Shown in pieces: positions 25,110 to 44,309 of a stretch of DNA of 64,000 nt. The position numbers and the translations under genes were made by a program. Positions within the stretch are counted from its first letter, which is position 1, and every line of letters starts with the position of its first letter. The DNA is from Catenuloplanes niger. GTDB taxonomy: Bacteria; Actinomycetota; Actinomycetes; Mycobacteriales; Micromonosporaceae. The DNA lies in contig NZ_JAVDYC010000001.1 of NCBI RefSeq assembly GCF_031458255.1, forward strand, positions 7,139,001-7,203,000, read 5' to 3'. The notes under the pieces were generated by a model. That model saw only the letters and a list, made by a program, of their open reading frames with translations, searched no databases and was not told the DNA's origin.

Positions 25110-26558
25110 GTGTCCCAGCGTCAGAAGGTCGTCATCGTCGGAGCCGGCATCGTCGGCGCCGCGACCGCGCGCGTGCTCGCCCGCTCCGGCGCCGACGTGG
25201 TCGTGGTCGACCGCGGCCCGAGCGCCGGCGGCACGTCGTCCGGCGGCGAGGGCAACATCCTGGTGTCCGACAAGGGTCCCGGCGCGGAACTGCGCCTCAC
25301 CCAGCGCTCGCTGGCCGCGTGGGCGCGGGTGCGCGCCGAGCTGCGCGACGAACTGCCAGCCGGCTTCCCGGACCTGGAGTTCGAGGCGAAGGGCGGCCTG
25401 GTCGCCGCGACCACCGAGGCCGGCGCGACCGCGCTGCTCGAGTTCGCCGCGACCCAGCGCGCCGCCGGCGTGATCGCCGAGGTGCTCGACGGCGATCGCG
25501 CACACGAACTGGAGCCGGACCTCACCCGCGCGCTGACCGCCGCGGTGCACTATCCGCAGGACGCCCAGGTCCAGCCCGTGATCGCGACCGAGGCGCTGCT
25601 CGCGGCCGCCCGCCGGCACGGCGCCCGGATCATCCAGGGGGTCGAGGTCCTCGGCCCGGTCCTGTCCGGACCGGCCGTCACCGGCGTACGGACCGCGGGC
25701 GGCACGCTGCCCGCGGACGCCGTGGTGATCGCGGCCGGGCCGTGGTCCGGCGAGGTCGCCGCGCGCTTCGGCGTGCCGCTGCCGGTCCGCCCGCGCCGCG
25801 GCACCGTGCTGGTCACGTCGCGGATGCGGCAGCGCGTGTTCCACAAGGTCTACGACGCGGACTACGTCGGCGCGGTCGGCTCCGGCGCGGCCGACCTGAT
25901 GGTCTCCAGCGTGGTCGAGTCCACCGCGGCCGGGACCGTGCTGATCGGCTCCTCCCGCGAGCGCCGCGGGTTCGACGACCGCATCGAGGCCCGCGTGCTG
26001 GCCGCGCTCGCCGCGAAGGCGATGCTGCTGTTCCCGTTCCTGGCGGACGTGCCGGTGATCCGCGCGTACGGTGGCTTCCGCCCGTTCGTCCCGGACCACC
26101 TCCCGGTGATCGGTGCGGACCCGCGCCGCCCCGGACTGTGGCACGCCACCGGCCATGAGGGCGCCGGCATCGGCCTCAGCCTCGCCACCGCCGACCTGCT
26201 CCACGACGCGATGCTCGGCGTCGCCGTCCCCGGCTTCCCCGGGTCCTCCGGTTCGTCCGGTTCGGCCGGTGGTTCCGCCGGTCCGGTCGTCGCCGGTGGT
26301 CCCGGTGGCCCGGTCGACCGCGACGGTTCGGGTGGCCCGGTCGACCGCGACGGACCCGGTGGCCCGGTAGGCGCCGGTGGCCCGGCAGGCCTCGATGGCG
26401 CGATGGGCCTCGGTGGCGCGGCAGGCCTCGGTAGCCCGGCACGCCTCGGTGGCGCGATGGGCCTCGCCGGCCCGGGTGGTGCCGGTGACGATCTCGCCGC
26501 CGAGTTCCGCCCGGACCGCCCGAGCCTGATGCCGTACCTGGAAGGATCCGCCGCATGA
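25110..26558 (+). CDS. FAD-dependent D-hydroxyproline dehydrogenase subunit (DadA/HcnC-like), with repeat insertion
   Basis: The protein is 482 residues from GTG 25110. The Rossmann FAD motif GAGIVGAATARVLA is at residues 10-23, followed by the DAO-family FAD-binding core. The central and C-terminal parts carry VQPVIATEALLAAARRHGARI, AAGPWSGEVAARFGVPLPVRPRRG and PFLADVPVIRAYGGFRPFVPDHLPVIG. The enzyme oxidises a D-amino acid, here by context cis-4-hydroxy-D-proline. About 85 residues of Gly-rich repeats (for example GGPVDRDGSGGPVDRDGPGG) are inserted after the conserved ATADLLHDAMLG and before the usual end FRPDRP (about residues 375-465; DNA 26235-26490). The insertion looks recent. The next gene overlaps by four bases (ATGA), so translation is coupled. 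Confidence 0.82.
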   Translation: MSQRQKVVIVGAGIVGAATARVLARSGADVVVVDRGPSAGGTSSGGEGNILVSDKGPGAELRLTQRSLAAWARVRAELRDELPAGFPDLEFEAKGGLVAATTEAGATALLEFAATQRAAGVIAEVLDGDRAHELEPDLTRALTAAVHYPQDAQVQPVIATEALLAAARRHGARIIQGVEVLGPVLSGPAVTGVRTAGGTLPADAVVIAAGPWSGEVAARFGVPLPVRPRRGTVLVTSRMRQRVFHKVYDADYVGAVGSGAADLMVSSVVESTAAGTVLIGSSRERRGFDDRIEARVLAALAAKAMLLFPFLADVPVIRAYGGFRPFVPDHLPVIGADPRRPGLWHATGHEGAGIGLSLATADLLHDAMLGVAVPGFPGSSGSSGSAGGSAGPVVAGGPGGPVDRDGSGGPVDRDGPGGPVGAGGPAGLDGAMGLGGAAGLGSPARLGGAMGLAGPGGAGDDLAAEFRPDRPSLMPYLEGSAA

Positions 26559-27184
26559 CCGGTCCATACCGCGTGGCACCCGCGCACGATCCGGTCGCAC
26601 CCGCGGACGGCGGCGCGATCGAACTGACCGTGGACGGCGAGCCCGTCGCCGGCCGCGCCGGCCAGACGATCGCCGGCGTGCTGCTGGCGTCCGGCCGCGT
26701 CTCCTGGCGGACCAGCCCGCGCGGTGGCCGCCCGCGCGGCGTCTTCTGCGGCATCGGCGTCTGCTTCGACTGCCTGGTCGTCGTCAACGGCCTCCGCGAC
26801 GTCCGCGCCTGCCAGCGCCGCGCCGCCGACGGCGACGTGATCACCCGCCAGGACGACGCCGGGCCACCGGACACTGTCCGCGCCGGCCGGGGCCGCGCCG
26901 ACGGCGACGTGAACACCCGCCAGGACGACGCCGGGCCACCGGACACTGTCCGCGCCGGCCGGGGCCGCGCCGACGGCGACGTGAACACCCGCCAGGACGA
27001 CGCCGGGCCACGGGGCACTCACCCATCCGCGCCGCAGGACGGCGGCGACCCCGGACATCCGGCGGCGGCGCGGCCGGGTGACGGTGACCGGCCGCCCGGC
27101 CGCCCGGCCGCGTCACGGCCCGGCGGCGACGCGGTGGTGCCACGGCACCACCGCGATCAGCCGGGTGCGGAAGGCGGCCGGTGA
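26555..27184 (+). CDS. [2Fe-2S] small subunit of D-hydroxyproline dehydrogenase (HcnA-like), with 72-bp repeats
   Basis: The protein is 209 residues, more than twice the about 90-110 usual for this family. Residues 25-95 form the ferredoxin-like core: IELTVDGEPVAGRAGQTIAG, then GVFCGIGVCFDC and a later Cys in VRACQR, which hold the [2Fe-2S] cluster. It transfers electrons between the two flavoprotein subunits. From about residue 90 the sequence repeats a 24-residue unit (ADGDVITRQDDAGPPDTVRAG...) encoded by 72-bp tandem repeats. The remaining tail is Pro/Gly/Arg-rich and probably disordered. It overlaps the preceding gene by four bases and the next starts at its stop (TGATG), so the three subunits are translationally coupled. 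Confidence 0.8.
   Translation: MTGPYRVAPAHDPVAPADGGAIELTVDGEPVAGRAGQTIAGVLLASGRVSWRTSPRGGRPRGVFCGIGVCFDCLVVVNGLRDVRACQRRAADGDVITRQDDAGPPDTVRAGRGRADGDVNTRQDDAGPPDTVRAGRGRADGDVNTRQDDAGPRGTHPSAPQDGGDPGHPAAARPGDGDRPPGRPAASRPGGDAVVPRHHRDQPGAEGGR
26825..27011. repeat. 72-bp tandem repeat, 2.6 copies, inside the [2Fe-2S] subunit gene
   Basis: Copies start at 26825, 26897 and 26969 (the last incomplete). Copies 2 and 3 differ from copy 1 by ATC to AAC. The unit length is a multiple of three, so the frame is kept. Near-identity at the DNA level implies recent duplication. Confidence 0.9.
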
Positions 27185-29385
27185 TGGAGGGCGTGCCGGT
27201 GCTGGTGGTCGGCGGCGGGCCGGCCGGGATGGCCGCGGCGCTGGCCGCGCGGCGGCACGGGGTGCGCGTGGTGCTGGTCGAGGCCGGTGACGACCTCGGT
27301 GGGCAGTACTGGCGGCACCTGCCGGCCGAGCGTGCGGGTGCGCGCGAGGAACTGCTGCATCACGGCTGGCGGCGGTTCCTGCGGATGCGGGCGGCGCTGC
27401 TGGCGGACGACGGCTGCGAGATCGTGCTCAACGGGCACGTCTGGTCGGCCGACCGGCGGGACGGCGCGCCACCGCTGATCCACGTCGTGGTCGGCCCGCC
27501 GGACGGGAACGGGCGCCCGCCGCGCACGTTCGACCCGGCGACGCTGATCCTCGCGACCGGCGCGCAGGAACGCACGCTGCCGTTCCCCGGCTGGGACCTG
27601 CCGGGCGTGTTCACCGCCGGTGCCGCGCAGGCGCTCGCCAAGGGGGAACGCGTCGCGGTCGGCCGCCGGGTCCTGGTCGCCGGCGCCGGACCGTTCCTGC
27701 TGCCGGTGGTGACGAGCCTGCTCCGTACCGGTGCGGAGGTCGTGGGTGTGGTCGAGGCCGCCGGATGGCGGCAGCTGGCCACGGGCTGGGGCGCGCGGCC
27801 CTGGCGGCTGATCGCCGCGAGCGCGAAGGCCGCGGAGCTGGGCGGGTACGTGCGGGACCTGGCCGCGAAGCGGATTCCCTACCGGACCGGCGCGGCCGTG
27901 ACCGCCGCGCACGGCACCGGCCGGGTCGAGGCCGTCACCGTCGCCGGCCTCGGCCCGGACTGGTCGCCGCGGTCCGGCACCGCACGCCGCGTCGAGGTCG
28001 ACGCGGTCTGCGTCAGCCACGGTTTCGTGCCGCGCACCGAACTCGCGGTGGCGGCGGGCTGCGCCACCGGCCCGGACGGAGCGGTGACCGTCGACGACGG
28101 CCAGCGCACGTCCGTGCCGGGCGTGTTCACCGCGGGCGAGCTGACCGGCATCGGCGGCGTCGACCTGGCGCTCGCCGAGGGCGAGATCGCCGGTGCCGTC
28201 GCCGCGGGCGGCCACCCGGCCGGCCGGGCGGTCCGGGCGCGCCGGGTGTTCCGCGAGTTCGCCGGCCGGCTGGCCGCCGCGCACCGGATCGGCCCCGGCT
28301 GGCAGGCCTGGCTGGACGACACCACCACGGTCTGCCGCTGCGAGGACGTCACCGCCGGTGACCTGCGCCGCGCCGCCCGCCTGACCGAGGCGCGCGGCCT
28401 GCGCTCACTCAAGCTCACCACCCGCGCCGGTCTCGGCATCTGCCAGGGCCGCACCTGCGGCCGCGCGGTCGAGGACATCCTCGCCGCCGCCGGCCCCGGC
28501 CTGCTCGACACCGGCCGGACCGCGCAGCGCCCGATCGCCGTCCCGATCCGCCTCGCCGAACTCGCCGCCACCACGAACCCACCCACGTCGACCGCCGTGC
28601 CGTCGTCGACCGCGGTGCCGTCGTCGACCGCGGTGCCGTCGTCGGCCGCGGTGCCGTCGTCGGCCGCGGTGCCGTCGTCGGCCGCGGTGCCGTCGTCGGC
28701 CGCGGTGCCGTCGTCGGCCGCGGTGCCGTCGTCGGCCGCGGTGCCGTCGTCGGCCGCGGTGCCGTCGTCGGCCGCCCCGGTGGCGGCAGCGGGGGTTGTC
28801 GTCCGGGTTGCCGGAACGGCGCGGGGGGAACCCGCCGCCACCACGAACTCGCCCACGGCGGCCGCCGTGCCGCCGTCGGTCGCCCCGGCGGCGGCAGCGG
28901 AGCCTGCCGGGGTTGCCGGAACGGCGCGGGGCGAACTCGCCACCACCACGAACCCGCCCACGCCGGCCGCCGTGCCGGAGGTGGCGACGCCGGCCGTCCC
29001 GGCGGCGGCAGCGGAGCCTGCCGGAGTTGCCGGAACGGTGCGGGACGAACTCGCCACCACCACGAACCCGCGCGCGGCAAGCGCCGTGCCGACGGCAAGC
29101 GCCGTGCCGACGGCAAGCGCCGTGCCGACGGCAAGCGCCGTGCCGACGGCAAGCGCCGTGCCGACGGCAAGCGCCGTGCCGACGGCAAGCGCCGTGCCGA
29201 CGGCAAGCGCCGTGCCGGCGCCGGCCGCGTCGGCGGGGTCTGCCGCGGTGGCCGGAGCGGAACCGGTGGCACCCACCGCCGGCGGCGACGGGGCCGTCGC
29301 CGCGCGGGACACGCGCATCGAAACCGACCGAGACGGCAGCGTTGCCGGGAATGTCCGTATGGGACCACAGGAGGACCGTTCATGA
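27184..29385 (+). CDS. NAD/FAD oxidoreductase with BFD [2Fe-2S] domain (HcnB-like), repeat-extended
   Basis: The protein is 733 residues from ATG 27184 (TGATG overlap; GTG 27181 is also possible). The first about 460 residues form the standard HcnB-like subunit: GGGPAGMAAALAARRHGV near residue 7, LILATGAQERTLPFPGW, VLVAGAGPF, and GVFTAGELTGIGGVDLALAEG. A BFD-type [2Fe-2S] domain follows, with CRCEDVTAGDLRRAAR and GICQGRTCG. It accepts electrons from D-hydroxyproline oxidation via the small subunit. About 270 further residues, not usual for the family, are low complexity: ten copies of a six-residue [TA]AVPSS unit, three imperfect repeats of about 110 bp, and eight copies of TASAVP. The C-terminus ends RMGPQEDRS. 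The next gene overlaps by four bases. Confidence 0.8.
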   Translation: MEGVPVLVVGGGPAGMAAALAARRHGVRVVLVEAGDDLGGQYWRHLPAERAGAREELLHHGWRRFLRMRAALLADDGCEIVLNGHVWSADRRDGAPPLIHVVVGPPDGNGRPPRTFDPATLILATGAQERTLPFPGWDLPGVFTAGAAQALAKGERVAVGRRVLVAGAGPFLLPVVTSLLRTGAEVVGVVEAAGWRQLATGWGARPWRLIAASAKAAELGGYVRDLAAKRIPYRTGAAVTAAHGTGRVEAVTVAGLGPDWSPRSGTARRVEVDAVCVSHGFVPRTELAVAAGCATGPDGAVTVDDGQRTSVPGVFTAGELTGIGGVDLALAEGEIAGAVAAGGHPAGRAVRARRVFREFAGRLAAAHRIGPGWQAWLDDTTTVCRCEDVTAGDLRRAARLTEARGLRSLKLTTRAGLGICQGRTCGRAVEDILAAAGPGLLDTGRTAQRPIAVPIRLAELAATTNPPTSTAVPSSTAVPSSTAVPSSAAVPSSAAVPSSAAVPSSAAVPSSAAVPSSAAVPSSAAVPSSAAPVAAAGVVVRVAGTARGEPAATTNSPTAAAVPPSVAPAAAAEPAGVAGTARGELATTTNPPTPAAVPEVATPAVPAAAAEPAGVAGTVRDELATTTNPRAASAVPTASAVPTASAVPTASAVPTASAVPTASAVPTASAVPTASAVPAPAASAGSAAVAGAEPVAPTAGGDGAVAARDTRIETDRDGSVAGNVRMGPQEDRS
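28591..28770. repeat. 18-bp tandem repeat, 10 copies
   Basis: The unit GCCGCGGTGCCGTCGTCG (first three copies begin ACC) is repeated ten times without length change, encoding (T/A)AVPSS. Exact DNA identity in most copies points to slippage or recombination, not ancient coding constraint. Confidence 0.92.
29074..29217. repeat. 18-bp tandem repeat, 8 copies
   Basis: The unit ACGGCAAGCGCCGTGCCG (first copy GCG...) is repeated eight times, encoding TASAVP. It lies 300 bp downstream of the other 18-bp array in the same gene, but the two units have unrelated sequences. Confidence 0.92.
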
Positions 29386-30305
29386 GTTCCGCACCGACCG
29401 ATCTGCGCGGCGTCATCGTCGCGACCGCGTTGCCGTTCAAGGAGAACGCGTCCGCGCCGGCCGGGCTGGAGGTGGACTACGACCGCTTCGCGGAGCACTG
29501 TGACTGGCTGATCAGCAACGGTTGCCGGGGCGTCGGGCCGAACGGGTCGCTGGGCGAGTACTCCGCGCTCACCGACGCGGAGCGGCGCCGGGTGGTGCAG
29601 GTCGCGGTGGAGGCCGTGGCGGGACGCGGCGTCGTGGTCGCCGGCGTGCACGGGCCGGGCTGGCACCAGGCGAGGCACTGGGCGGAGCTGGCGGCGGAGG
29701 ACGGCGCGGACGGCGTGCTGGCGCTGCCGCCGACCATGTACCGGGCCAGTGACGCGCAGGTGGTCGAGCACTTCAGCAAGATCGACGAGGTCGGCCTGCC
29801 GATCATGATCTACAACAACCCGATCGACACCAAGGTGGACCTGGTGCCGAGCCTGGTCGCGGAGATCGCGCAGCTGCCGAACGTCACCGCGATCAAGGAG
29901 TTCAGCGGTGACGTCCGCCGGCTCTTCGAGATCCGGGAACTGTGCGACATCGACGTGGTCGCCGGCGCGGACGACGTGCTGTTCGAGCTGATGGTGGACG
30001 GCGCGGTCGGCTGGTTCGCCGGCTTCCCGAACGCGTTCCCGGCCGAGTCCGTGGAGATCTACGACCTGATGATCGAGGGCCGGGTCGCCGAGGCGCGCGA
30101 GCTCTACAAGCAGCTGGTCGCGGTGTTCCGCTGGGACTCGCGCACCGAGTTCGTGCAGGCGATCAAGCTGAGCATGGAGATGGTCGGCCGGTACGGCGGC
30201 CCGTGCCGCCCGCCACGCGGCGCGCTCACGCCGCGGCACGACGCCCAGGTGCGCGCGGACATGGACCGTGCGATCAAGGGCCTCGAAGAGTACCGGGCAC
30301 GCTGA
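29382..30305 (+). CDS. Delta1-pyrroline-4-hydroxy-2-carboxylate deaminase (DapA superfamily)
   Basis: The protein is 307 residues. It belongs to the N-acetylneuraminate lyase/DHDPS fold: GPNGSLGEYSALTDAER stands for the GxxGE loop, the catalytic Tyr is in MIYNNP, and the Schiff-base lysine is K172 in AIKEFSGD. The family alone does not fix the substrate, since DapA-like enzymes include dihydrodipicolinate synthase, 2-keto-3-deoxy sugar aldolases and the hydroxyproline pathway deaminase. The flanking D-hydroxyproline dehydrogenase and hydroxyproline epimerase genes make the deaminase the best call. It would convert pyrroline-4-hydroxy-2-carboxylate to alpha-ketoglutarate semialdehyde and ammonia in the cytoplasm. 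It overlaps the upstream gene by ATGA and the downstream by TGATG. Confidence 0.85.
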   Translation: MSSAPTDLRGVIVATALPFKENASAPAGLEVDYDRFAEHCDWLISNGCRGVGPNGSLGEYSALTDAERRRVVQVAVEAVAGRGVVVAGVHGPGWHQARHWAELAAEDGADGVLALPPTMYRASDAQVVEHFSKIDEVGLPIMIYNNPIDTKVDLVPSLVAEIAQLPNVTAIKEFSGDVRRLFEIRELCDIDVVAGADDVLFELMVDGAVGWFAGFPNAFPAESVEIYDLMIEGRVAEARELYKQLVAVFRWDSRTEFVQAIKLSMEMVGRYGGPCRPPRGALTPRHDAQVRADMDRAIKGLEEYRAR

Positions 30306-31309
30306 TGCGCGCGAAGCGGATGTTCTCCGCGGTCGACTCGCACACCGAGGGCATGCCCACCCGGGTCGTCACCGGCGGGATGGGCGTGATCCCGGGCGCG
30401 ACCATGAACGAGCGCCGGCTGCACTTCGTCGCGCACCTCGACCACATCCGCAAGCTGCTGGTGAACGAGCCGCGCGGGCACTCCGCGATGAGCGGCGCGA
30501 TCCTGCAGCCGCCGACCCGGCCGGACGCGGACTTCGGCGTGCTCTACATCGAGGTCTCCGGCTGCCTGCCGATGTGCGGGCACGGCACGATCGGCGTGGC
30601 CACCGTGCTGGTCGAGACCGGCATGGTCGAGGTGGTCGAGCCGGTCACCACGATCCGGCTGGACACCCCGGCCGGCCTGGTGATCGCGAACGTCGCGGTG
30701 GCGGACGGCCGGGCGCGGCACGTGACGCTGGAGAACGTGCCGTCCTACTGCGACCGGCTGGACGAGACGATCACCGTGCCCGCGCTCGGCAGGGAGATCA
30801 CCTACAGTCTCGCGTTCGGCGGCAACTTCTACGCCATGGTCGATCTGGAGCAGCTCCGGCTGCCGTTCGACCGGGCGTACAAGCAGGAGATCCTGACCGC
30901 CGGCCTGGCGATCATGGAGGCGATCAACACGCAGGCGCCGCCGTCGCACCCGACCATCGACGGCGTCGACCACTGCCACCACGTCGAGTTCATCGCGCCC
31001 GGCTCGGACGCCACGCTGTCCCGGCACGCGATGGCGATCCACCCGGGGTGGTTCGACCGGTCGCCGTGCGGCACCGGCACCTCCGCCCGGATGGCGGAGC
31101 TGCACGCGCGCGGCGAGCTGCCGCTGCACCGCGACTTCGTCAACGAGTCGTTCATCGGCAGCCGGTTCACCGGCAGACTGATCGGGGAAACCGACGTCGA
31201 CGGCAGGAGAGCGGTGCTGCCGACGATCACCGGGCGGGCCTGGATCACCGGCTTCGGCCAGTACGTGCTGGACCCGACCGACCCGTACCCGCACGGCTTC
31301 GAATTCTGA
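30305..31309 (+). CDS. 4-hydroxyproline 2-epimerase (proline racemase family)
   Basis: The protein is 334 residues, starting with MRAKRMFSAVDSHTEGMPTRVV, the typical family start. The two catalytic Cys are present: C91 in LPMCGHGTIG and C255 in SPCGTGTSAR, the latter in the GTG context that distinguishes racemases/epimerases from trans-3-hydroxyproline dehydratases, which have Thr there. The substrate-binding region VDHCHHVEF is also present. It interconverts trans-4-hydroxy-L-proline and cis-4-hydroxy-D-proline, feeding the dehydrogenase encoded upstream. It is cytoplasmic. Confidence 0.9.
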   Translation: MRAKRMFSAVDSHTEGMPTRVVTGGMGVIPGATMNERRLHFVAHLDHIRKLLVNEPRGHSAMSGAILQPPTRPDADFGVLYIEVSGCLPMCGHGTIGVATVLVETGMVEVVEPVTTIRLDTPAGLVIANVAVADGRARHVTLENVPSYCDRLDETITVPALGREITYSLAFGGNFYAMVDLEQLRLPFDRAYKQEILTAGLAIMEAINTQAPPSHPTIDGVDHCHHVEFIAPGSDATLSRHAMAIHPGWFDRSPCGTGTSARMAELHARGELPLHRDFVNESFIGSRFTGRLIGETDVDGRRAVLPTITGRAWITGFGQYVLDPTDPYPHGFEF

Positions 31310-31324
31310 CGAGGGGACTCTCAC

Positions 31325-32704
31325 GTGACTGACGTGGAACCGCTGCTCGCGGCCGCCGACGCGGCCCGGCCCGCGATGCGCAGGGCGAGCGCCGCCACCC
31401 GGGCGGACTGGCTGGACGCGGTCGCGGACGCGCTCGACAAGGCCCGGGACGAGCTGGTCGCGCTCGCCGGTGAGGAGACGCACCTGCCCGAGGCGCGGCT
31501 GACCGGCGAGCTGGGCCGGACCACGTTCCAGGCCCGGTTGTTCGCCGAGGGCCTGCGCGGTGGTGAACTGACGCCGGTCCGGGTCGACCCGGAGGATCCC
31601 GGCTGGGGCATGGGGCCGCGTCCGGAGCTGCGCCGCACGGTGGTGCCGATCGGGCCGGTGCTGGTCTTCGCGGCCAGCAACTTCCCGTTCGCGTTCAGTG
31701 TGTTCGGCGGCGACACCGTCTCCGCGCTGGCCGCCGGCTGCCCGGTGGTGCTCAAGGCGCATCCCGGGCATCCGCGCCTGTCCCGCCGTACCGCCGAGGT
31801 GGTGGTCGACGCGCTGCGCGCCGCGGGCGCGCCGGACGGCGCGTTCGGGCTGCTGGAGGGCGTCGAGGAGTCGATCACCGCGCTGCGCGACCCGCGGATC
31901 CGGGCGGCCGGGTTCACCGGGTCGACGGCCGGCGGGCGGGCGCTGTTCGACATCGCGGCGTCGCGCCCGGACCCGATCCCGTTCTACGGCGAGCTGGGCA
32001 GCGTCAACCCGGTCGTGGTCACGCCGGCCGGCTGGGCCGAGCGCGGCGCCGCGATCGCGGGGGAGTGGGTCGGTTCGCTGACGCTCGGCGCCGGCCAGTT
32101 CTGCACGAATCCGGGCGTGATCCTGGTGCCGGACGCGGACGCGTTCGTCGCCGCGGTGCGGCCGCCGGTGCCCGGCCGCATGCTCTCCGAGTCGATGGAG
32201 AAGAACCTCGCGGCCCGGGTCGCCGAGGTCGCCGCGCTGCCCGCGGTGCACCGGGTGGCCGAGAGCGAACCCAACGACCAGGGGGTACGGACGACCGTGC
32301 TGGCCGTCTCGGCCCCCGAGGTGATGGCGGACCCGCGCGCGCTCGACGTCGAGATGTTCGGCCCGGCCGGCCTGGTCGTCGGCTACGCCTCGCAGGACGA
32401 GCTGGACGCGGTGCTGCGGCTGGTCCCCGGGCAGCTCACCGGCACGATCCAGGCGCACAGCACGGACGACGACCCGGTGGCCCGGCACGTGGTGGGCGCG
32501 CTGGAGGACCGGGCCGGGCGGATCGTCTACAACGCGTGGCCGACCGGCGTGACCGTCTCCGGCGCGCAGCACCACGGCGGTCCCTGGCCGTCCACCACGG
32601 CGCCGACCAGCACGTCGGTGGGGCTGGCCGCGATCGGCCGGTGGCAGCGGCCGGTCACCTACCAGGGTGCCCCCGCGTCGGTGCTGCCGCCGGAGCTGCG
32701 ATAG
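31325..32704 (+). CDS. Alpha-ketoglutarate semialdehyde dehydrogenase (ALDH family)
   Basis: The protein is 459 residues from GTG 31325, with GAGGGGA upstream. The ALDH core is clear: LVFAASNFPFAFSVFGGDT, the Rossmann Lys motif VVLKAHPGHP, GFTGSTAGGRALFD, the general base E223 in YGELGSVNP and the nucleophile C260 in GAGQFCTNPG. This subgroup (KGSADH type III, hydroxyproline-linked) has the GQFCTNPG pattern. It would oxidise alpha-ketoglutarate semialdehyde to 2-oxoglutarate with NAD(P)+, so the operon drains into the TCA cycle. Spacing from the epimerase is 15 bases. The operon closes with a perfect terminator 12 bases after its stop. Confidence 0.88.
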   Translation: MTDVEPLLAAADAARPAMRRASAATRADWLDAVADALDKARDELVALAGEETHLPEARLTGELGRTTFQARLFAEGLRGGELTPVRVDPEDPGWGMGPRPELRRTVVPIGPVLVFAASNFPFAFSVFGGDTVSALAAGCPVVLKAHPGHPRLSRRTAEVVVDALRAAGAPDGAFGLLEGVEESITALRDPRIRAAGFTGSTAGGRALFDIAASRPDPIPFYGELGSVNPVVVTPAGWAERGAAIAGEWVGSLTLGAGQFCTNPGVILVPDADAFVAAVRPPVPGRMLSESMEKNLAARVAEVAALPAVHRVAESEPNDQGVRTTVLAVSAPEVMADPRALDVEMFGPAGLVVGYASQDELDAVLRLVPGQLTGTIQAHSTDDDPVARHVVGALEDRAGRIVYNAWPTGVTVSGAQHHGGPWPSTTAPTSTSVGLAAIGRWQRPVTYQGAPASVLPPELR

Positions 32705-32716
32705 TCCTGGTCTAGT

Positions 32717-32745
32717 CGTGCCGGCCGGGACACCCGGCCGGCACG
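32717..32745 (+). terminator. Perfect 13-bp hairpin terminator of the hydroxyproline operon
   Basis: CGTGCCGGCCGGG (32717-32729) pairs perfectly with 32733-32745 over an ACA loop. It is followed immediately by the motif in front of gntR, so the regulator has its own promoter. Confidence 0.75.
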
Positions 32746-32746
32746 A

Positions 32747-32761
32747 TGTGACATTGTATTG
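32747..32761 (+). promoter_or_regulatory. Shared motif, site B (gntR promoter)
   Basis: TGTGACATTGTATTG matches sites A and C at 12 of 15 positions. It lies 23 bp before the gntR start codon, leaving room for the ribosome binding site GGAGGTGG (32773-32780). Autoregulation of the repressor is likely. Confidence 0.55.
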
Positions 32762-32784
32762 TCTCCAGACATGGAGGTGGTCAG

Positions 32785-33453
32785 GTGAGTGCATCGGTCA
32801 TCGGCCCGGTGGCCGTCGGGGCGAGCCTGCGCGGCACCGTGGAGGACGCGGTCGCGGCCGCGATCGTCTCCGGCGAGCTGGCCCCCGGCACGCTGGTCAC
32901 CGCGCCCACGCTGGCCGCCCGGTTCGGCGTCTCCGCCACGCCGGTCCGCGAGGCGATGCTCAACCTGCAGAAACGTGGCTTCGTCGACGCGGTGCGGAAC
33001 AAGGGTTTCCGGATCACCGACGTCAGCGAGCAGGACCTGTGGGAGATCGTCCGGATCCGGCAGGACCTGGAGGGCCCGCCGATGCGGGACGTCGCGCGCA
33101 CGCTGCAGCCGGCGGCCGCGGCCGAGCTGCGGGTCAAGGCGCAGGCGATCGTGGACGCGGCCGCGGCGCCCGACCTGGCCGGCTACCTCGCCGCGGACAT
33201 GGCATTTCACCTGCGGCTGCTGGAGCTGCACGGCAACCGCCGGCTGATCGAGATCGTCAAGGACCTGCGGCAGCAGACGCGCATGGTGGGGCTGGCCGAC
33301 ATGGTCGGCACGGCCGAGCTGGCCCGGTCCGCGGCCGAGCACCACAGCCTGGTCGACCTGCTCGAGGCGCGCGACGGCCGGGGCGCGGAGACGCTGCTCA
33401 GGGCGCACATCGGCCACGTGCTCGGCTGGTGGAACGGCCGCGCCGAGGACTGA
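32785..33453 (+). CDS. GntR-family (FCD) transcriptional regulator
   Basis: The protein is 222 residues from GTG 32785. The winged-helix domain is VEDAVAAAIVSGELAPGTLVTAPTLAARFGVSATPVREAML, with the family pattern SxTPVREAL-like. The C-terminal FCD-type all-helical domain has DMAFHLRLLELHGNRRL and EHHSLVDLLEARD, with the metal/ligand His residues typical of FadR subgroup members. It lies between the hydroxyproline and peptide-import operons and has the shared motif at its own promoter, so it probably controls both. The inducer may be hydroxyproline or a pathway intermediate; that is inference. Confidence 0.85.
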   Translation: MSASVIGPVAVGASLRGTVEDAVAAAIVSGELAPGTLVTAPTLAARFGVSATPVREAMLNLQKRGFVDAVRNKGFRITDVSEQDLWEIVRIRQDLEGPPMRDVARTLQPAAAAELRVKAQAIVDAAAAPDLAGYLAADMAFHLRLLELHGNRRLIEIVKDLRQQTRMVGLADMVGTAELARSAAEHHSLVDLLEARDGRGAETLLRAHIGHVLGWWNGRAED

Positions 33454-33475
33454 TTCACGCACGGTTCGTGGTCGA

Positions 33476-33501
33476 GGCGTCACCCCGGGCGGGGTGGCGC
33501 C
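33476..33501 (+). terminator. 11-bp hairpin terminator of gntR
   Basis: GGCGTCACCCC (33476-33486) pairs with 33491-33501 over a GGGC loop, with one G-U pair. It is followed by TCTGCTGTGTTCC. Confidence 0.6.
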
Positions 33502-33555
33502 TCTGCTGTGTTCCCGGCCGGTAAATAGTTGCTCGCCATCTCTTCACCTGCGCTG

Positions 33556-33570
33556 TGTGACATACTACTG
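33556..33570 (+). promoter_or_regulatory. Shared motif, site C (transporter operon promoter)
   Basis: TGTGACATACTACTG is 14 of 15 identical to site A. It lies 168 bp before the binding-protein start at 33738, implying a long 5' leader if it is near the transcription start. Confidence 0.6.
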
Positions 33571-33604
33571 TCCTCCCTAAGCGACCGGGGTCACCCGGCG
33601 TGAC

Positions 33605-35426: not shown

Positions 35427-35428
35427 CG

Positions 35429-36388
35429 GTGACCATCGCACCCACCGGGTTGCAGGTCTCGGCGGCGTCCCTCGACCAGGGCGCCGCCGTGACCCCGGCA
35501 GACCCCCGCAGACATCCCGCCCGCATGATCCTGCGCGATCCCGCGGCGGTGGCCTGCCTGGCCTACATCGGCCTGGTAGTGCTGATGGCGGTGTGCGCAC
35601 CGCTCGTCGTCCGGATCAGCGGCTGGGGACCGTACGAGTTCGACCAGAGCGCGATCGACCCGAACCTCGGCGGCATCCCGCTGGGCGGCGCGGGCGGGAT
35701 CTCCGGCGAGCACTGGCTCGGCGTGGAGCCGGGCAGCGGGCGGGACATCTTCGCCCGGATCGTCTACGGCGCGCGTTCGTCGCTGCTGATCGCGCTGGCC
35801 GCGACCGCGCTGACCACCGTGCTCGGCGTGACGTTCGGGCTGCTGGCCGGCTACTTCGGCGGTCGCACCGACATGCTGATCTCGCGGGTGATGGAGTTCC
35901 TGATGGCGTTCCCCGCGCTGATCTTCATGATCGCGGTGCTGTCCGCGATGCCCGCGGACAACCGCCAGTACCTGCTGGTCCTGGTGATCTCCGTGTTCGG
36001 CTGGCCGTACCTGGCCCGGCTGATCCGCGCGCAGACCATGTCGCTGAAGGAGCGTGAGTTCGTCGAGGCGGCGCGCGCGTCCGGCGCGTCCCGCACGCAG
36101 ATCGTCTTCGTGGAGATCCTGCCGAACCTGCGCTCCACCATCCTGGTCGTGGTGACCATGGCGGTGCCCGGCTACATCGGCACCGAGGCCGGGCTGTCGT
36201 TCCTCGGCGTGGGCCTGGTCCCGCCGGCCCCGTCCTGGGGGCAGATGATCGCCAGTTCGGTCAGCTGGTACGCGGTCGTCCCCACCTACTTCCTCGTGCC
36301 GGGCACGTTCCTGGCCCTGCTCGTCCTCGCGTTCATGGTCCTCGGTGATCGGGTCCGCGCGGCGGTGGACCCGGGAGGCCTGCGATGA
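35429..36388 (+). CDS. ABC transporter permease (DppC-like)
   Basis: The protein is 319 residues from GTG 35429, two bases after the upstream stop. The N-terminal about 40 residues are a cytoplasmic extension, then six membrane helices are expected. The EAA loop that docks the ATPase is EAARASGASRTQIVFVEILP, and the conserved LSFLGVGLVPPAPSWGQMI follows near the C-terminus. A soluble insert between helices 1 and 2 (GPYEFDQSAIDPNLGGIPLGG...SGEHWLGVEPGSGRDIFAR) is typical of DppC-type permeases. It forms the translocation pore with the next gene product. Confidence 0.9.
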   Translation: MTIAPTGLQVSAASLDQGAAVTPADPRRHPARMILRDPAAVACLAYIGLVVLMAVCAPLVVRISGWGPYEFDQSAIDPNLGGIPLGGAGGISGEHWLGVEPGSGRDIFARIVYGARSSLLIALAATALTTVLGVTFGLLAGYFGGRTDMLISRVMEFLMAFPALIFMIAVLSAMPADNRQYLLVLVISVFGWPYLARLIRAQTMSLKEREFVEAARASGASRTQIVFVEILPNLRSTILVVVTMAVPGYIGTEAGLSFLGVGLVPPAPSWGQMIASSVSWYAVVPTYFLVPGTFLALLVLAFMVLGDRVRAAVDPGGLR

Positions 36389-39046: not shown

Positions 39047-40313
39047 TCGAATATCCGATGCCCGGTGCCTGGGTCCGGGAGTTCACCGTCGACGTGCCGC
39101 TGGACTGGGACGCCCCGGACGCCGGGACGATCGAGCTGTTCGTGCGCGAGTTCGCCGACCCGGAGCGGCGGCACGACGACCTGCCGCTGCTCACCTACCT
39201 GCAGGGCGGGCCCGGCGGCGCGAACCCGCGGTTCACCGGCGTCGACGGGTGGCTGGCCGAGGCGCTGCCGCACTACCGGGTGGTGCTGGTCGACCAGCGC
39301 GGCACCGGCCGCAGCTCACCGATCGACGGCCAGGTCATCTCGTCGGTCGCCGACCCGGGCGCCTACCTGCTGAGGTTCCGGGCCGACTCGATCGTGCGGG
39401 ACCTGGAGCACGTGCGCCGCACCCGGTACGCCGGCCGGCGCTGGGCCACGCTCGCGCAGAGCTTCGGCGGCTGGATCACGCTGACCTACCTCTCCACCGC
39501 GCCCGAGGCGCTGACCGCCTGCTACGTCTGCGGCGGCATCCCCGGCATCCCGGCCGACCCGGACGAGGTCTACCGCCGCACGTTCGACCGGGCCGCCGCG
39601 AAGACCGCGGACCTCTACCGCCGCTATCCGCAGGACGTGGCGGCCGTCACCGCGATCGCGGACCTGCTGGCCGACGGCGGGACCGTGCTGCCGGACGGCT
39701 CGCCGCTGTCCGTGCGGCGCTTCCAGACGCTCGGTGGCGACCTCGGCTTCGGCCGCGGCCACCTGCGCCTGCACTGGCTGGTCTCGGAGGCGTTCACCCG
39801 CGACGGCCGGCTGACGAACGGTTTCCTGGAGAACGTGCTGGTCCGGACGTCCAACGCGACGAACCCGCTGTTCTGGACACTGCAGGAGACGATCTACGGC
39901 GACGGTACGAACGGGCCGTTCCGCTGGTCCGCGCAGCGCGAACGGGACCGCCGGCCCGAGTTCGCCGAGGACCGCCGGCCGCTGCTGTTCACCTCCGAGA
40001 TGGCGTTCCCGTGGCTGTTCGAGGAGGTCCGCGCGCTGCGCCCGTTCGCGGCCGCGATGGAGCAACTGGCCGCCGTGGAGACGTGGACGCCGCTCTACGA
40101 CCCGGACCGGCTCGCGGCCAACCCGGTGCCGCTCGCCGCCGTGGTCTACCACGACGACCTCTTCGTGGACGAGGGCTTGCAGCGGCGGACGCTCGCGCGG
40201 CTCGGCAACGCGACCGCGTGGGTCACCAACGAGTTCGAGCACGACGGCATCGGCAGCGGCCACACGTTCACCCGCCTGCGGGAGATGGTCCGCGACCGAG
40301 GAGGAGAACTGAG

Positions 40314-40317
<4 letters not shown>
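39043..40317 (+). CDS. Alpha/beta hydrolase, prolyl-iminopeptidase-like (S33)
   Basis: The protein is 424 residues from ATG 39043, overlapping the upstream stop. It has no signal peptide. The S33 hallmark oxyanion motif GGPGGANP is followed by VVLVDQRGTGRSSPID, and the nucleophile is S140 in AQSFGGWITL. Asp and His of the triad are probably in VYHDDLFVDE and GSGHTF. The family releases N-terminal proline (and hydroxyproline) from peptides or amides. Its place in the operon with a peptide importer and an M24 peptidase suggests cytoplasmic cleavage of Pro/Hyp-rich peptides. A Gly-X-Ser-X-Gly motif is present only as AQSFGG, with Ala before Gln. Confidence 0.82.
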
Positions 40318-41687
<1,370 letters not shown>

Positions 41688-41694
41688 GACACCG

Positions 41695-44292
41695 GTGTTC
41701 CCCCCTCTCTCCGATGTGGACCTGCTCGACGGCGTCCACTCCCGTACCCGGGACCGCATGCTGCACCTGGCCCGCGTCTTCCCGGTCGACCGGGTGCTCG
41801 CCGTGTTCCGGGCGAACGCCGGGCTCGACACCCGCGGCGCGCTGCCGCCCGGAACCTGGGAGGACTTCGGCCACCCGGACGAGAAGCCGTGGTCGGAGTC
41901 CGACTACCCGGGCGCGGGCGCGGCCCCGACCGCGAGCCTGCTGCGCGGGCACTACGCCGGGCACTTCCTGTCCATGCTGTCACTGGCCCACGCGTCCACC
42001 GGCGACCCGGTGTTCCGCGACCGGGCGCACGAGGTGGTCGCGGGGCTGGCCGAGGTGCAGGCCGCGCTCGCCGCCACCGGGCGCTACAGCCACCCCGGAT
42101 TCCTCGCGGCGTACGGCGAATGGCAGTTCTCCCGGCTCGAGGAGCTCGCGCCGTACGGGGAGATCTGGGCGCCGTACTACACCTGCCACAAGATCATGGC
42201 GGGGCTGCTGGACGCGTACACGCTGACCGGCTCGGACCCGGCGCTGGACGTGGTCACCGGGATGGGGCACTGGGTCGCGGGGCGGATCCTCGCGGTCGCG
42301 CCGGAGCAGCGGCAGCGGATGTGGTCGCTGTACATCGCGGGCGAGTTCGGCGGCATGAACGAGAGCCTGACCACGCTGCACCGGATCACCGGCGAGCCGG
42401 TGTTCCTGGCGGCCGCGGCCGCGTTCGAGATGGACGCGTTGCTGGACGCGGCGGCCGCGGGCCGGGACGTGCTGGACGGCATGCACGCGAACCAGCACCT
42501 GCCGATGCTGGTCGGCCACCTCGCGCAGTACGAGGTCACCGGCGACCGTCGCTACCTGGACGCGGTGGTCGCGCTGTTCGGTCAGGTGGTGCCGGGCCGG
42601 ACGTTCGCGCACGGCGGCACCGGCGAGGGCGAGCTGTGGGGGCCGGCCGGGCACGTGGCGCGCGGCATCGGCCGGCGCAACGCGGAGACGTGCGCGACGT
42701 ACAACCTGCTGAAGATCGCGCGCGGGCTGTTCACGCACACCCGGGACGTGCGGTACGCGGACTACGCCGAGCGGGCCACGCTGAACCACATCGCCGGCTC
42801 ACGCGCGGACGTGGACTCGGACGTCAGCCCCGAGGTGCTGTACATGTACCCGGTCGACGCGGGCGCGGTCCGGGAGTACGGCAACGCCGGCACCTGCTGC
42901 GGCGGCACCGGGCTGGAGAGCCACGTCAAGGCGCAGGAGTCGGTCTGGTTCCGCGACGACGAGAGCCTCTACGTGCTGCAGTACGTGCCGTCGCGGCTGC
43001 GGTGGGCGGAGCGCGGCGGCACCGTCGCGCTGCGCACGGCGTACCCCCGGGACGGCCTGGTCGCCCTCGACTTCGATCTGGACGGCCCGGTCGACCTGCG
43101 CCTCCGGGTGCCGGAGTGGGTGCCGGAGCGGCGGGCGCTGGTCGACGGCGTGCTCACCGCCGCGAAGGACGGCTTCCTCCGGATCCGGCGGGACGTGCGC
43201 CGCGGCGACACGGTGACCGTGGAGTTCCCGATGCCGCTGCGGCTGGTGCCCGCGCCGGACGACCCGGCGCTGGTGTCGGTGGAGTTGGGGCCGACCGTGC
43301 TGCTGGCCCGCGACGACGCGACCACCACGCTGGAGGTGGCCCCGGCCGCGCACCGTGAGCTGGACTGCTCGATCGGGTTCCGCGCACTCGGCGGCGACCT
43401 GGTGTCCGCGCTCGGGCTGGAGTTCGAACCGGCCTGGTCCGGCGGGGATCGTCGCTACCACATGTACCTGCGGGTCGCGGACCCGGTGATCGCGTTCCCG
43501 GGCGCGGTGACCGAGGTGCCGGACCGGCACGACGCGCACGGCTGGTCGTTCCTGACCGGGCTGTGGGCGTCCGGCGGGTTCCCGACGCACACGTCGTTCC
43601 TGGAGTCGGTGCACCGGAACGCGCGGCGGGCCGCGACGGCCGGACTGCTCGGCCGGGACGAGGTGATCACGGTGCTGGCGGCCGCGGCGGCCAGCACCGT
43701 CTCCGGCGCCGAGCCGCGGCGCAGCGAGATCCTGCCGTCCGGCGACCTGACCGTGACCGGTGACCTGGTCACCTGGCCGCTGTCCGCCGCGATCGGCGCG
43801 GGCGAGCCGATGCCGGCGGTGCGGATCGAGGTGGCGGGGGAGCGGGCACCGTCCGGGTGGTACACCGGCGCGCCGGCCGTCTCCGTGGTCACCCACGGCG
43901 CGGTCACGTCGGTCGCGCTGACCGGGGGCGTGGTCGCCGGGCGGCCGCTGCCGGACGGACGGCACGTGGTGCGCGCGGAGGCGACCGACCCGGCCGGGCG
44001 CGTGGTGCACGCGACGCGCGAGGTCGCGGTCGACACCACGCCGCCGTCCGTGCGGGCCCGGGTGCGCGCGCTCGGCCCGCACAACGTCGAGGTGACGCTG
44101 CACGCGGACGACGAGGTGTCCGGGGTGGACCGGATCCGGTGGCGGACCGGCGAGACGTTCTGGGGCGTCTACCAGGAGCCGTTCACCCGGGCGCTGCACG
44201 CCGCGCCGCAGATCCTGGAGTTCACCGCGACCGACCGGGCCGGCAACACGTCCCCGGTGCAGCGGGTCGCACTCCCCGCGGCCGGAACCTGA
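41695..44292 (+). CDS. GH127-type beta-L-arabinofuranosidase (DUF1680), cytoplasmic
   Basis: The protein is 865 residues from GTG 41695, seven bases after the M24 stop. No signal peptide. The alpha/alpha-barrel domain is recognised by WAPYYTCHKIMAGLLDAY, the long ETCATYNLLKIARGLFT and the GTCCGGTGLESHVKAQESVWF motifs. The Zn-Cys active site is complete: E331 and C333 (ExC), and C401-C402 (CC), equivalent to E338/C340/C417/C418 of Bifidobacterium HypBA1, with the first Cys of the pair as nucleophile. Beta-sandwich domains follow (about residues 420-640), then an Ig-like C-terminal domain (TPPSVRARVRALGPHNVEVTLH...). HypBA1 releases L-arabinose from Hyp-linked oligoarabinosides. A related GH127/GH146 specificity cannot be excluded. 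Confidence 0.85.
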   Translation: MFPPLSDVDLLDGVHSRTRDRMLHLARVFPVDRVLAVFRANAGLDTRGALPPGTWEDFGHPDEKPWSESDYPGAGAAPTASLLRGHYAGHFLSMLSLAHASTGDPVFRDRAHEVVAGLAEVQAALAATGRYSHPGFLAAYGEWQFSRLEELAPYGEIWAPYYTCHKIMAGLLDAYTLTGSDPALDVVTGMGHWVAGRILAVAPEQRQRMWSLYIAGEFGGMNESLTTLHRITGEPVFLAAAAAFEMDALLDAAAAGRDVLDGMHANQHLPMLVGHLAQYEVTGDRRYLDAVVALFGQVVPGRTFAHGGTGEGELWGPAGHVARGIGRRNAETCATYNLLKIARGLFTHTRDVRYADYAERATLNHIAGSRADVDSDVSPEVLYMYPVDAGAVREYGNAGTCCGGTGLESHVKAQESVWFRDDESLYVLQYVPSRLRWAERGGTVALRTAYPRDGLVALDFDLDGPVDLRLRVPEWVPERRALVDGVLTAAKDGFLRIRRDVRRGDTVTVEFPMPLRLVPAPDDPALVSVELGPTVLLARDDATTTLEVAPAAHRELDCSIGFRALGGDLVSALGLEFEPAWSGGDRRYHMYLRVADPVIAFPGAVTEVPDRHDAHGWSFLTGLWASGGFPTHTSFLESVHRNARRAATAGLLGRDEVITVLAAAAASTVSGAEPRRSEILPSGDLTVTGDLVTWPLSAAIGAGEPMPAVRIEVAGERAPSGWYTGAPAVSVVTHGAVTSVALTGGVVAGRPLPDGRHVVRAEATDPAGRVVHATREVAVDTTPPSVRARVRALGPHNVEVTLHADDEVSGVDRIRWRTGETFWGVYQEPFTRALHAAPQILEFTATDRAGNTSPVQRVALPAAGT

Positions 44293-44309
44293 CGCGGCGG
44301 CCGGAACCG

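What the first reader, a model, noticed from the sequence alone, without database searches (positions are those of the whole stretch)
25110..44292. A linked system for importing and using arabinosylated hydroxyproline-rich peptides
Seen: two operons side by side, each with near-continuous ATGA/TGATG overlaps. One carries all enzymes of the trans-4-hydroxy-L-proline pathway (epimerase with both catalytic Cys; three-part D-Hyp dehydrogenase; DapA-type deaminase; KGSA dehydrogenase). The other carries a peptide-type ABC importer, an S33 prolyl-iminopeptidase-like hydrolase, an M24 Xaa-Pro-type peptidase and a GH127 enzyme with the ExC...CC zinc-cysteine site. None of the three hydrolases has an export signal. 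Established: GH127 HypBA1 cleaves beta-L-arabinofuranosides on hydroxyproline of extensin. Inference: import of Hyp-O-arabinosylated peptides or amino acids, cytoplasmic deglycosylation, Pro/Hyp-specific peptide cleavage, then conversion of Hyp to 2-oxoglutarate. I know of the parts separately but not of this joined layout.
Basis: partly seen in the sequence, partly recalled or inferred. Interest (0 to 1): 0.86.

Follow-up and report, generated by a model that had tools for sequence, protein, structure and literature searches.

The report
Arabinosylated-hydroxyproline peptide utilization locus
Two neighbouring bacterial gene sets, one taking in and trimming peptides and one burning hydroxyproline, share the same control site and travel together through several groups of soil bacteria, which points to a pathway for eating the sugar-coated hydroxyproline proteins of plant cell walls.

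Summary
Observation confirmed, one label corrected. The window (genus inferred: Catenuloplanes) holds a trans-4-hydroxyproline (Hyp) operon and, 1 kb on, an operon for a peptide-type ABC importer, an S33 prolyl aminopeptidase, an M24 aminopeptidase P and a beta-L-arabinofuranosidase. The last belongs with GH146, not GH127; some published GH146 enzymes cleave Araf-beta-Hyp itself. Between the operons lies a GntR/FCD gene whose promoter contains the published Streptomyces HypR site letter for letter; close variants stand at both operon promoters, and the pattern has no other exact match in the 9.74-Mb genome. In Microbacterium, sampled from the GH146 side, 12 of 12 genomes with this GH146 type carry the S33 gene 1.4-1.6 kb away, against 0 of 30 other genomes checked. 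The blocks stay linked in several gene orders; in 3 of 80 loci L-arabinose genes adjoin; rhizobial S33 loci, one on symbiosis plasmid pRL10, often carry a GH127 instead. Best reading: import of arabinosylated Hyp peptides, cytoplasmic removal of arabinose, peptide trimming, Hyp to 2-oxoglutarate. Substrate binding and enzyme specificity are untested; the operator was not found in Microbacterium; the glycosidase is an optional module. Ten searches of the held open-licence library found no description of this joined system.

The parts
25110..26558 (+). D-Hyp dehydrogenase FAD subunit (DAO family), first gene of the Hyp operon
   Evidence: Pfam PF01266 7e-69; same gene set as SCO6289-6291 described in PMC6608401
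26555..27184 (+). D-Hyp dehydrogenase 2Fe-2S subunit (Fer2_4)
   Evidence: PF13510 3.5e-24; ATGA overlap
27181..29385 (+). D-Hyp dehydrogenase NAD/Fer2_BFD subunit, C-terminal part expanded by repeats
   Evidence: PF07992 and PF04324; repeats
29382..30305 (+). DapA-type deaminase (probable Pyr4H2C deaminase)
   Evidence: PF00701 9.5e-46
30305..31309 (+). 4-hydroxyproline epimerase / proline racemase family, both Cys motifs present
   Evidence: PF05544 1.9e-122; motifs; PDB proline racemases
31325..32704 (+). aldehyde dehydrogenase, candidate 2-oxoglutarate semialdehyde dehydrogenase
   Evidence: PF00171 6.6e-33; no equivalog cut-off met among those listed
32785..33453 (+). GntR/FCD regulator, HypR-like
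   Evidence: PF07729, PF00392; own promoter holds the HypR footprint sequence (PMC6608401)
33738..35426 (+). peptide-type substrate-binding lipoprotein (SBP family 5)
   Evidence: PF00496 5e-74; best solved relative 2wok, clavulanic acid cluster oligopeptide-binding protein 2
35429..36388 (+). ABC permease (OppC/DppC type)
   Evidence: PF00528, weak PF12911
36385..37383 (+). ABC permease (OppB/DppB type)
   Evidence: PF19300, PF00528
37380..38192 (+). ABC ATPase (OppD/DppD type)
   Evidence: PF00005, PF08352
38189..39046 (+). ABC ATPase (OppF/DppF type)
   Evidence: PF00005, PF08352
39043..40317 (+). S33 prolyl aminopeptidase of a long (DM3-like) type, apparently cytoplasmic
   Evidence: phmmer 4.3e-83 to AT3g61540; AF2 pLDDT 91.5, Foldseek best 8jgn TMq 0.93
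40314..41687 (+). M24 aminopeptidase P (Xaa-Pro aminopeptidase), apparently cytoplasmic
   Evidence: PF00557, PF05195; best PDB match aminopeptidase P II
41695..44292 (+). GH146-like beta-L-arabinofuranosidase without visible signal peptide, C-terminal OmpL47-like domain (ORF opens at GTG 41629; GTG 41695 likelier by comparison with C. japonicus)
   Evidence: profile v PDB: GH146 BT0349 8.5e-85, best GH127 5.3e-25; Foldseek ranks 1-6 GH146; start; domain
25093..25107 (+). HypR-like operator TGTGACATATTACTG, Hyp operon promoter
   Evidence: same site in C. japonicus
32747..32761 (+). HypR-like operator TGTGACATTGTATTG (contains the reverse complement of the published TACAATGTCAC), gntR promoter
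   Evidence: PMC6608401
33556..33570 (+). HypR-like operator TGTGACATACTACTG, importer/peptidase/GH146 operon promoter
   Evidence: found in other genera
24984..24998 (-). HypR-like site TGTAACATTCTACTG before the class-V PLP gene
   Evidence: identical in C. japonicus
23819..24982 (-). class-V aminotransferase-fold PLP enzyme, probable regulon member, role unknown (an ATG at 24970 is a likelier start)
   Evidence: PF00266 1e-14; PDB best: Cys/cystine C-S lyase; sequence

Best explanation
The locus is one HypR-controlled unit for using hydroxyproline-containing peptides that carry beta-L-arabinofuranose, such as fragments of plant extensins and related Hyp-rich glycoproteins. Steps: an Opp/Dpp-type ABC importer takes in short peptides or Hyp-arabinosides (inferred); the cytoplasmic GH146 enzyme removes beta-L-Araf by the Cys-nucleophile, zinc-bound mechanism (residues shown, substrate inferred); the S33 enzyme removes N-terminal Pro/Hyp and the M24 enzyme cleaves Xaa-Pro/Hyp bonds (family-level inference); freed Hyp is epimerised, oxidised, deaminated and oxidised to 2-oxoglutarate (gene set shown, pathway established elsewhere); L-arabinose goes to L-arabinose catabolism (an AraA gene lies elsewhere in this genome; ara genes lie beside the block in three relatives). 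The GntR protein represses both operons through the shared operator until Hyp or a product induces them (sites shown; action inferred from S. coelicolor HypR).
For: Operator: three exact matches to TGTGACATDNTAYTG in 9.74 Mb, all at this locus (the pattern was drawn from these sites, so the telling part is that there is no fourth). In 80 related loci (1.63 Mb) 36 matches with at most one mismatch, 31 of them -60 to 350 bp before a system gene; reversed pattern 0. HypR footprint in the gntR promoter (PMC6608401). Linkage: of 38 loci with S33 at 60% identity or more, 32 have the GH146, 33 a GH146 or GH127, 32 the M24, 31 the ABC set, 28 at least one Hyp gene, all within the stretch held; several block orders. 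GH146-anchored sample of 149 Microbacterium genomes: 12 of 12 with this GH146 type (60% identity or more) have S33 at 1.4-1.6 kb, 0 of 30 others checked do; epimerase 11/12 v 2/30. L-arabinose genes beside the block in 3 of 80 loci: Humibacillus L079, M. arabinogalactanolyticum L072 and, in part, Leucobacter L067. GH146 members XeHypBA1 and Bll4HypBA1 act on Araf-beta-Hyp (PMC10850190, passages). Of the 42 loci with S33 below 60%, 22 have a GH127, 21 of them alphaproteobacterial by title; pRL10 also has DHDPS, GntR and Xaa-Pro peptidase genes.
Against: No ligand or activity data exist for these proteins. The nearest solved SBP is an oligopeptide-binding protein, so unglycosylated peptides may be the main cargo. 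No operator match was found in any of the 12 Microbacterium loci with this GH146 (L068-L075, L077, L078, L081, L082), nor in L067, L079, L083, L084 or the rhizobial loci, so shared control is not shown there. Part of the pattern may be a -10 box. Without GH146 or GH127 in the stretch held there are still S33+M24+Hyp genes (Leifsonia L088, Arthrobacter L091), S33+M24 (Arthrobacter L092) and S33+Hyp (Sporosarcina L096), so the glycosidase is optional. Six GH146 loci show no Hyp gene in the stretch held (L061, L067, L072, L073, L083, L086); in L072 the epimerase is 190 kb away, in L086 the Hyp genes lie about 20 kb on along the same contig. Five S33 loci of 60% or more have neither glycosidase; three of those genomes lack the epimerase too. 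The GH146 clade has a long stem (0.88), and a characterised GH146, Bll3HypBA1, hardly acts on Hyp forms, so GH146 membership does not prove the substrate.
Confidence: 0.72

Rival explanations
1. It is a general Hyp/Pro-peptide (collagen- or gelatin-like) utilization locus; the glycosidase serves only a sugar-bearing minority of the peptides or another arabinoside.
For: S33 with M24 and/or Hyp genes occurs without a GH127/146 in the stretch held in several genera; the S. coelicolor HypR regulon includes a putative collagenase (PMC6608401).
Against: In the Microbacterium sample this GH146 type and S33 were not found apart (12/12 v 0/30 checked); a different GH127 sits near S33 in 21 alphaproteobacterial loci; L-arabinose genes join the block in three loci. 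No M9 collagenase hit in this genome, but no control genome rang either, so that says little.
Confidence: 0.17
2. It is a beta-arabinooligosaccharide salvage system like that of Bifidobacterium: the sugar is the main substrate and the Hyp genes are only neighbours.
For: LacI plus ara genes occur beside the block in three loci; rhizobial loci L104 and pRL10 carry a sugar-type importer next to the GH127.
Against: In the window the importer is of the peptide type, two peptidases sit in the same operon, and the operator is that of a Hyp regulator. No search for GH121 was made.
Confidence: 0.07
3. The two operons are neighbours by chance or hitch-hiking and have no joint function.
For: Separate promoters; in L072 the epimerase lies 190 kb from the GH146 and in some other genomes on another contig.
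Against: Shared operator without other exact match in the genome; linkage in several block orders in six families (Micromonosporaceae, Kineosporiaceae, Glycomycetaceae, Microbacteriaceae, Ruaniaceae; Dermabacteraceae).
Confidence: 0.04

Closest known systems
HypR regulon of Streptomyces coelicolor (SCO6289-SCO6294; PMC6608401)
   Same: Same catabolic gene set (three-part dehydrogenase, DapA-type deaminase, epimerase), a GntR/FadR-type repressor gene, same operator core.
   Different: Table 2 of that paper lists a collagenase and no peptide importer, S33, M24 or arabinofuranosidase. Identity of the window regulator to SCO6294 was not computed.
Bifidobacterium longum HypBA1-HypBA2-HypAA beta-arabinooligosaccharide system (PMC7263609, PMC5928203; passages)
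   Same: Acts on arabinose chains of Hyp-rich glycoproteins; cytoplasmic beta-L-arabinofuranosidase; ABC importer.
   Different: There two enzymes work outside the cell and a sugar importer takes up beta-Ara2; no Hyp catabolism or peptidase in the passages read. Here the importer is peptide-type and Hyp itself is burned.
GH146 Araf-beta-Hyp hydrolases XeHypBA1 and Bll4HypBA1 (as described in PMC10850190)
   Same: Same GH family by profile and fold, same E-x-C/CC zinc site.
In-silico prediction of extensin use by Latescibacteria (PMC4454575, passages)
   Same: A GH127 gene read as removing arabinose from Hyp of extensins, with oligopeptide transporters in the same genomes.
   Different: No linked locus, Hyp catabolism or shared control in the passages read.
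S. meliloti and Pseudomonas Hyp catabolic loci (as cited in PMC6608401, and recalled)
   Same: Epimerase, D-Hyp dehydrogenase, deaminase, KGSA dehydrogenase.
   Different: Not known to me with GH146, S33 and M24 genes (recall, no call).

Membership tests
trans-4-hydroxy-L-proline catabolic pathway | epimerase of the proline racemase family with both Cys | tested here: met
   PF05544 1.9e-122; MCGHG and SPCGTG
trans-4-hydroxy-L-proline catabolic pathway | D-Hyp dehydrogenase, three-subunit type | tested here: met
   DAO, Fer2_4 and Pyr_redox/Fer2_BFD genes in a row, as in SCO6289-6291; family level
trans-4-hydroxy-L-proline catabolic pathway | DapA-type deaminase | tested here: met
   PF00701; family level only
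trans-4-hydroxy-L-proline catabolic pathway | 2-oxoglutarate semialdehyde dehydrogenase | tested here: inconclusive
   Aldedh family met; KGSA model 60.7 bits against cut-off 770
HypR regulon | GntR/FCD regulator gene with TACAATGTCAC in its own promoter | tested here: met
   PMC6608401
HypR regulon | binding by the regulator and induction by Hyp | not testable with these tools
   needs EMSA and RT-qPCR
GH127 | closest to GH127 members by profile and fold; Glyco_hydro127C domain | tested here: not met
   best GH127 5.3e-25, HypBA1 2.4e-13, v GH146 8.5e-85; PF20737 absent from the window protein, present in GH127s beside related loci
GH146 | closest to GH146 members by profile and fold | tested here: met
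GH146 | E-x-C and CC zinc/nucleophile residues | tested here: met
   E353, C355, C423, C424 invariant in 26 sequences (numbering from 41629)
GH146 | hydrolysis of beta-L-arabinofuranosides | not testable with these tools
   no assay
S33 prolyl aminopeptidase (long, DM3-like type) | fold, Ser/Asp/His and QGGPGG motif | tested here: met
   S140, D372, H400 and Q54-G59 invariant in 27 sequences; Foldseek 8jgn. That these three form the triad is assumed
M24 aminopeptidase P | M24 plus AMP_N domains, nearest to aminopeptidase P | tested here: met
Bifidobacterial beta-arabinooligosaccharide system | sugar importer | tested here: not met
   importer SBP is family 5, peptide type
Bifidobacterial beta-arabinooligosaccharide system | extracellular GH121 | not tested
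   none among the operon genes scanned; the genome was not searched for it

The most novel reading that the evidence does not exclude
This is an undescribed kind of locus in which whole arabinosylated Hyp peptides enter the cell and are stripped there, built at least twice around the same S33 peptidase with different glycosidases (GH146 in actinomycetes, GH127 in rhizobia, including the symbiosis plasmid pRL10). Its substrates could include the arabinosylated peptide hormones of plants (CLE, PSY and the like; recalled), so that root bacteria could erase such signals.
Probability: 0.12. Interest if true: 0.9.

Novelty: new variant of a known kind. Interest (0 to 1): 0.72.

Why it matters
Extensins and other Hyp-rich glycoproteins are an abundant and hard-to-digest part of plant walls, and how soil bacteria use both their sugar and their amino acid is little known. 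A conserved, co-regulated gene set gives named genes to test, ties the known Hyp pathway to plant glycoproteins rather than to collagen alone, offers a distinct GH146 clade as candidate Araf-Hyp hydrolases, and points to a comparable set in legume symbionts.

Tried and rejected
Aceric-acid hydrolase for the GH: NCBIfam NF049879 34.9 bits against a cut-off of 950; rejected. Chance neighbourhood: rejected. Sigma-70 promoter scan: none found, 0.2 expected. A class-wide draw of 394 genomes gave, at E<=1e-140, only the window and three enzymes at 46-48% identity, too few to test linkage. M9 collagenase in the own genome: no hit, but no control genome rang, so not usable. The class-V PLP gene near a Microbacterium locus is not a relative of the window one (E 0.85). 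In Kineosporia mesophila the S33 gene lies alone in L052, while the Hyp and importer genes sit at the end of another contig (L150-L151); not resolved. Chance of a GH127/146 gene near S33 was judged only roughly: 67 matches at E<=1e-40 in 101 genomes. GH146 v GH127 in the locus counts was by HMM score (over 200 bits = GH146); 6 of the low-scoring ones were checked by Pfam and have the GH127 C-terminal domain. Tree rows: fragments under 500 aa and second copies of the same locus were left out, 60 rows kept.

Literature: ten searches; no listed paper described the joined system, but only open-licence PMC papers are held. PMC6608401: outline with abstract, part 1 of 3 of Results, and two further sections. 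PMC10850190, PMC7263609, PMC5928203, PMC4113996, PMC4454575, PMC9147577, PMC3333776: passages only. Others: listings only. AT3g61540 is named DM3 in the PDB titles; that DM3 is annotated as a prolyl aminopeptidase is recalled.

Full report
WHAT IS THERE. The window lies in a 9.74-Mb, single-contig genome. Gene by gene its locus is 76-96% identical, over the aligned parts, to one in genome G002, listed as same genus. G002's contig has the length (220,112) of the Catenuloplanes japonicus NRRL B-16061 contig, so the genus is inferred. Two plus-strand operons flank a GntR/FCD regulator gene. Operon 1 (25110-32704): three D-Hyp dehydrogenase subunits, DapA-type deaminase, epimerase, aldehyde dehydrogenase. 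Operon 2 (33738-44292): SBP family 5 lipoprotein, two permeases, two ATPases, S33 hydrolase, M24 peptidase, PF07944 glycosidase.

THE GLYCOSIDASE IS GH146-LIKE. A profile of 26 operon glycosidases matches GH146 BT0349 at 8.5e-85 and Bll3HypBA1 at 4e-69; the best GH127 is at 5.3e-25 and HypBA1 at 2.4e-13. The AlphaFold model (mean pLDDT 82.6) has GH146 structures in Foldseek ranks 1-6 (TMq 0.56-0.58) and GH127 structures in ranks 7-21 (0.45-0.51). E-x-C and CC residues are invariant in all 26. PMC10850190 (passages) reports that GH146 XeHypBA1 and Bll4HypBA1 act on Araf-beta-Hyp, while Bll3HypBA1 prefers beta-1,3-Araf and hardly touches Hyp forms; membership allows but does not prove Hyp specificity. 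In a tree of 60 rows the 31 operon enzymes form one clade (support 100, stem 0.88); the program warns of long branches meeting. By eye their N-termini lack an export signal; no predictor was run.

SHARED CONTROL. The GntR gene's promoter holds TGTGACATTGTA; its reverse complement contains TACAATGTCAC, the HypR sequence of S. coelicolor (PMC6608401; window). Both operon promoters hold TGTGACATAYTACTG. In the whole genome that pattern has two exact matches, both here; the next best, two mismatches, stands before the divergent class-V PLP gene (with up to three mismatches 13 matches against 29 for the reversed-pattern control, so weak matches mean nothing). The wider TGTGACATDNTAYTG has three exact matches, all here, and two with one mismatch, one of them here (with up to two mismatches 17, control 7). 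The patterns were drawn from these sites. All four sites recur in C. japonicus. In the 80 S33-anchored loci (1.63 Mb) 36 matches with at most one mismatch were found, 31 just upstream of a system gene; the reversed pattern gave none. They lie in Symbioplanes, Actinoplanes, Kineosporia, Catenuloplanes, Glycomyces, Brachybacterium, Leifsonia, Arthrobacter and Sporosarcina loci, and in none of the 12 Microbacterium loci with this GH146, nor in L067, L079, L083, L084 or the rhizobial loci. The site may overlap the -10 region (the S. coelicolor footprint does), so part of its conservation may be promoter sequence. At the Hyp operon only 2 bp separate it from the GTG at 25110, so that start, or a leaderless transcript, needs checking.

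LINKAGE. One genome-contig scan with an S33 alignment kept the best 80 of 427 confirmed loci; all 80 are counted here. In the 38 with S33 at 60% identity or more: M24 32, ABC set 31, GH146 32, GH127 5, either 33, at least one Hyp gene 28, at least two 25, glycosidase plus a Hyp gene 27. Five have neither glycosidase (L052, L063, L076, L080, L085). In the 42 below 60%: GH146 0, GH127 22, window-type M24 4, Hyp genes 4. Stretches reach 10 kb either side and some are cut by contig ends. Block orders among GH146 loci: Hyp block, regulator, importer block (Catenuloplanes, Actinoplanes, Symbioplanes, Kineosporia); the same without the regulator (Ruaniaceae L084); importer block, regulator, Hyp block (Glycomyces); importer block, DapA-epimerase, regulator, dehydrogenase (Microbacterium). 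Of 42 genomes asked for, 40 were held and 37 had the epimerase at E<=1e-60; the three without are those of L076, L080 and L085.

TEST FROM THE OTHER SIDE. Since that scan was anchored on S33, I drew 149 Microbacterium genomes and searched with the GH146 of L068. 22 matched at E<=1e-150. Twelve had the operon type (60% identity or more; one, G506, is a fragment at a contig edge, 72%); ten had only another type at 48-51%, which G556 has besides. S33 (E<=1e-80) and epimerase (E<=1e-100) were then sought in 42 of the 149: those 22 and the 20 matchless genomes whose handles were listed; 107 matchless genomes were not checked. S33: 12 of 12, at 1.4-1.6 kb, against 0 of 30; G556 has a second, 52% S33 elsewhere. 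Epimerase: 11 of 12 against 2 of 30; from the GH146 it lies about 1 kb away in nine, 9.9 kb in one, 190 kb in one, and was not found in one. Fisher p 9e-11 and 2e-7 ignore relatedness and are only a guide.

ARABINOSE. Humibacillus L079: GH127, SBP, permeases, ATPases, S33, M24, LacI, FGGY kinase, class II aldolase, AraA, then aldehyde dehydrogenase (reverse) and Hyp dehydrogenase genes. M. arabinogalactanolyticum L072: GH146, GntR, LacI, class II aldolase, FGGY kinase, AraA. Leucobacter L067: GH146, LacI, aldolase, FGGY kinase, end of stretch. Ara genes were found in these 3 of 80 loci. The window genome has one AraA, unlinked.

RHIZOBIA. S33 genes of 52-55% identity have a GH127 within the stretch held in 21 alphaproteobacterial loci; many are close kin, so few independent events. 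On pRL10 of Rhizobium johnstonii 3841 the annotated order is sugar-type SBP and permeases, beta-L-arabinofuranosidase, ATPase, DHDPS family, GntR, S33 hydrolase, Xaa-Pro peptidase. Martelella L105: S33, GH127, DHDPS family, peptide importer. Mesorhizobium L097: peptide importer, S33, M24, no glycosidase found. [quoted passage not shown] its relation to this system was not tested.

THE PEPTIDASES. S33: 4.3e-83 to Arabidopsis AT3g61540, titled DANGEROUS MIX 3 (TMq 0.93, 37% identity), far ahead of the short prolyl iminopeptidases. PMC9147577 (passages) cites work on high activity of Serratia prolyl aminopeptidase on acetylated Hyp; that enzyme is of the short type. M24: best match aminopeptidase P II.

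VERDICT. The parts are known; the joined, HypR-controlled import-and-deglycosylate system was not found in ten searches of the held library. Shown: gene content, operator sites, linkage. Inferred: substrate, order of steps, induction.

Noticed in passing
window 26265-26487, 26824-27024, 28586-29217: Tandem repeats (units of 18 to 114 bp, one array 100% identical) lie in the 3' parts of all three D-Hyp dehydrogenase genes and give low-complexity protein tails.
   Followed up: partly
window 23819-24982 (-), site 24984-24998: A class-V aminotransferase-fold PLP enzyme, divergent from the Hyp operon, has a HypR-like site before it, identical in C. japonicus; its part in Hyp use is unknown.
   Followed up: partly
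L162 (pRL10 266553-287836): Rhizobium johnstonii symbiosis plasmid carries GH127, DHDPS-family, GntR, S33 and Xaa-Pro peptidase genes side by side, plus an alpha-L-fucosidase and a second ABC importer.
   Followed up: partly
window 41695-44292, C-terminal part: The apparently cytoplasmic GH146 ends in an OmpL47-type domain (NCBIfam NF047446), a kind named after a surface protein.
   Followed up: no
window 56337-61880 (-): 1847-aa open frame with high third-position GC and no Pfam match at E<=1e-5.
   Followed up: no
window 43857-46055 (+): PLD-like (PLDc_2) protein gene just downstream of the GH146; the true start is probably near 44.85 kb.
   Followed up: no
window 18824-19771 (+) and 17967-18812 (-): A beta-lactamase-family gene divergent from a LysR-type regulator gene.
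   Followed up: no
L052 and L150-L151: Kineosporia mesophila: S33 gene alone among unrelated genes, while the Hyp and importer genes lie at the end of another contig.
   Followed up: partly
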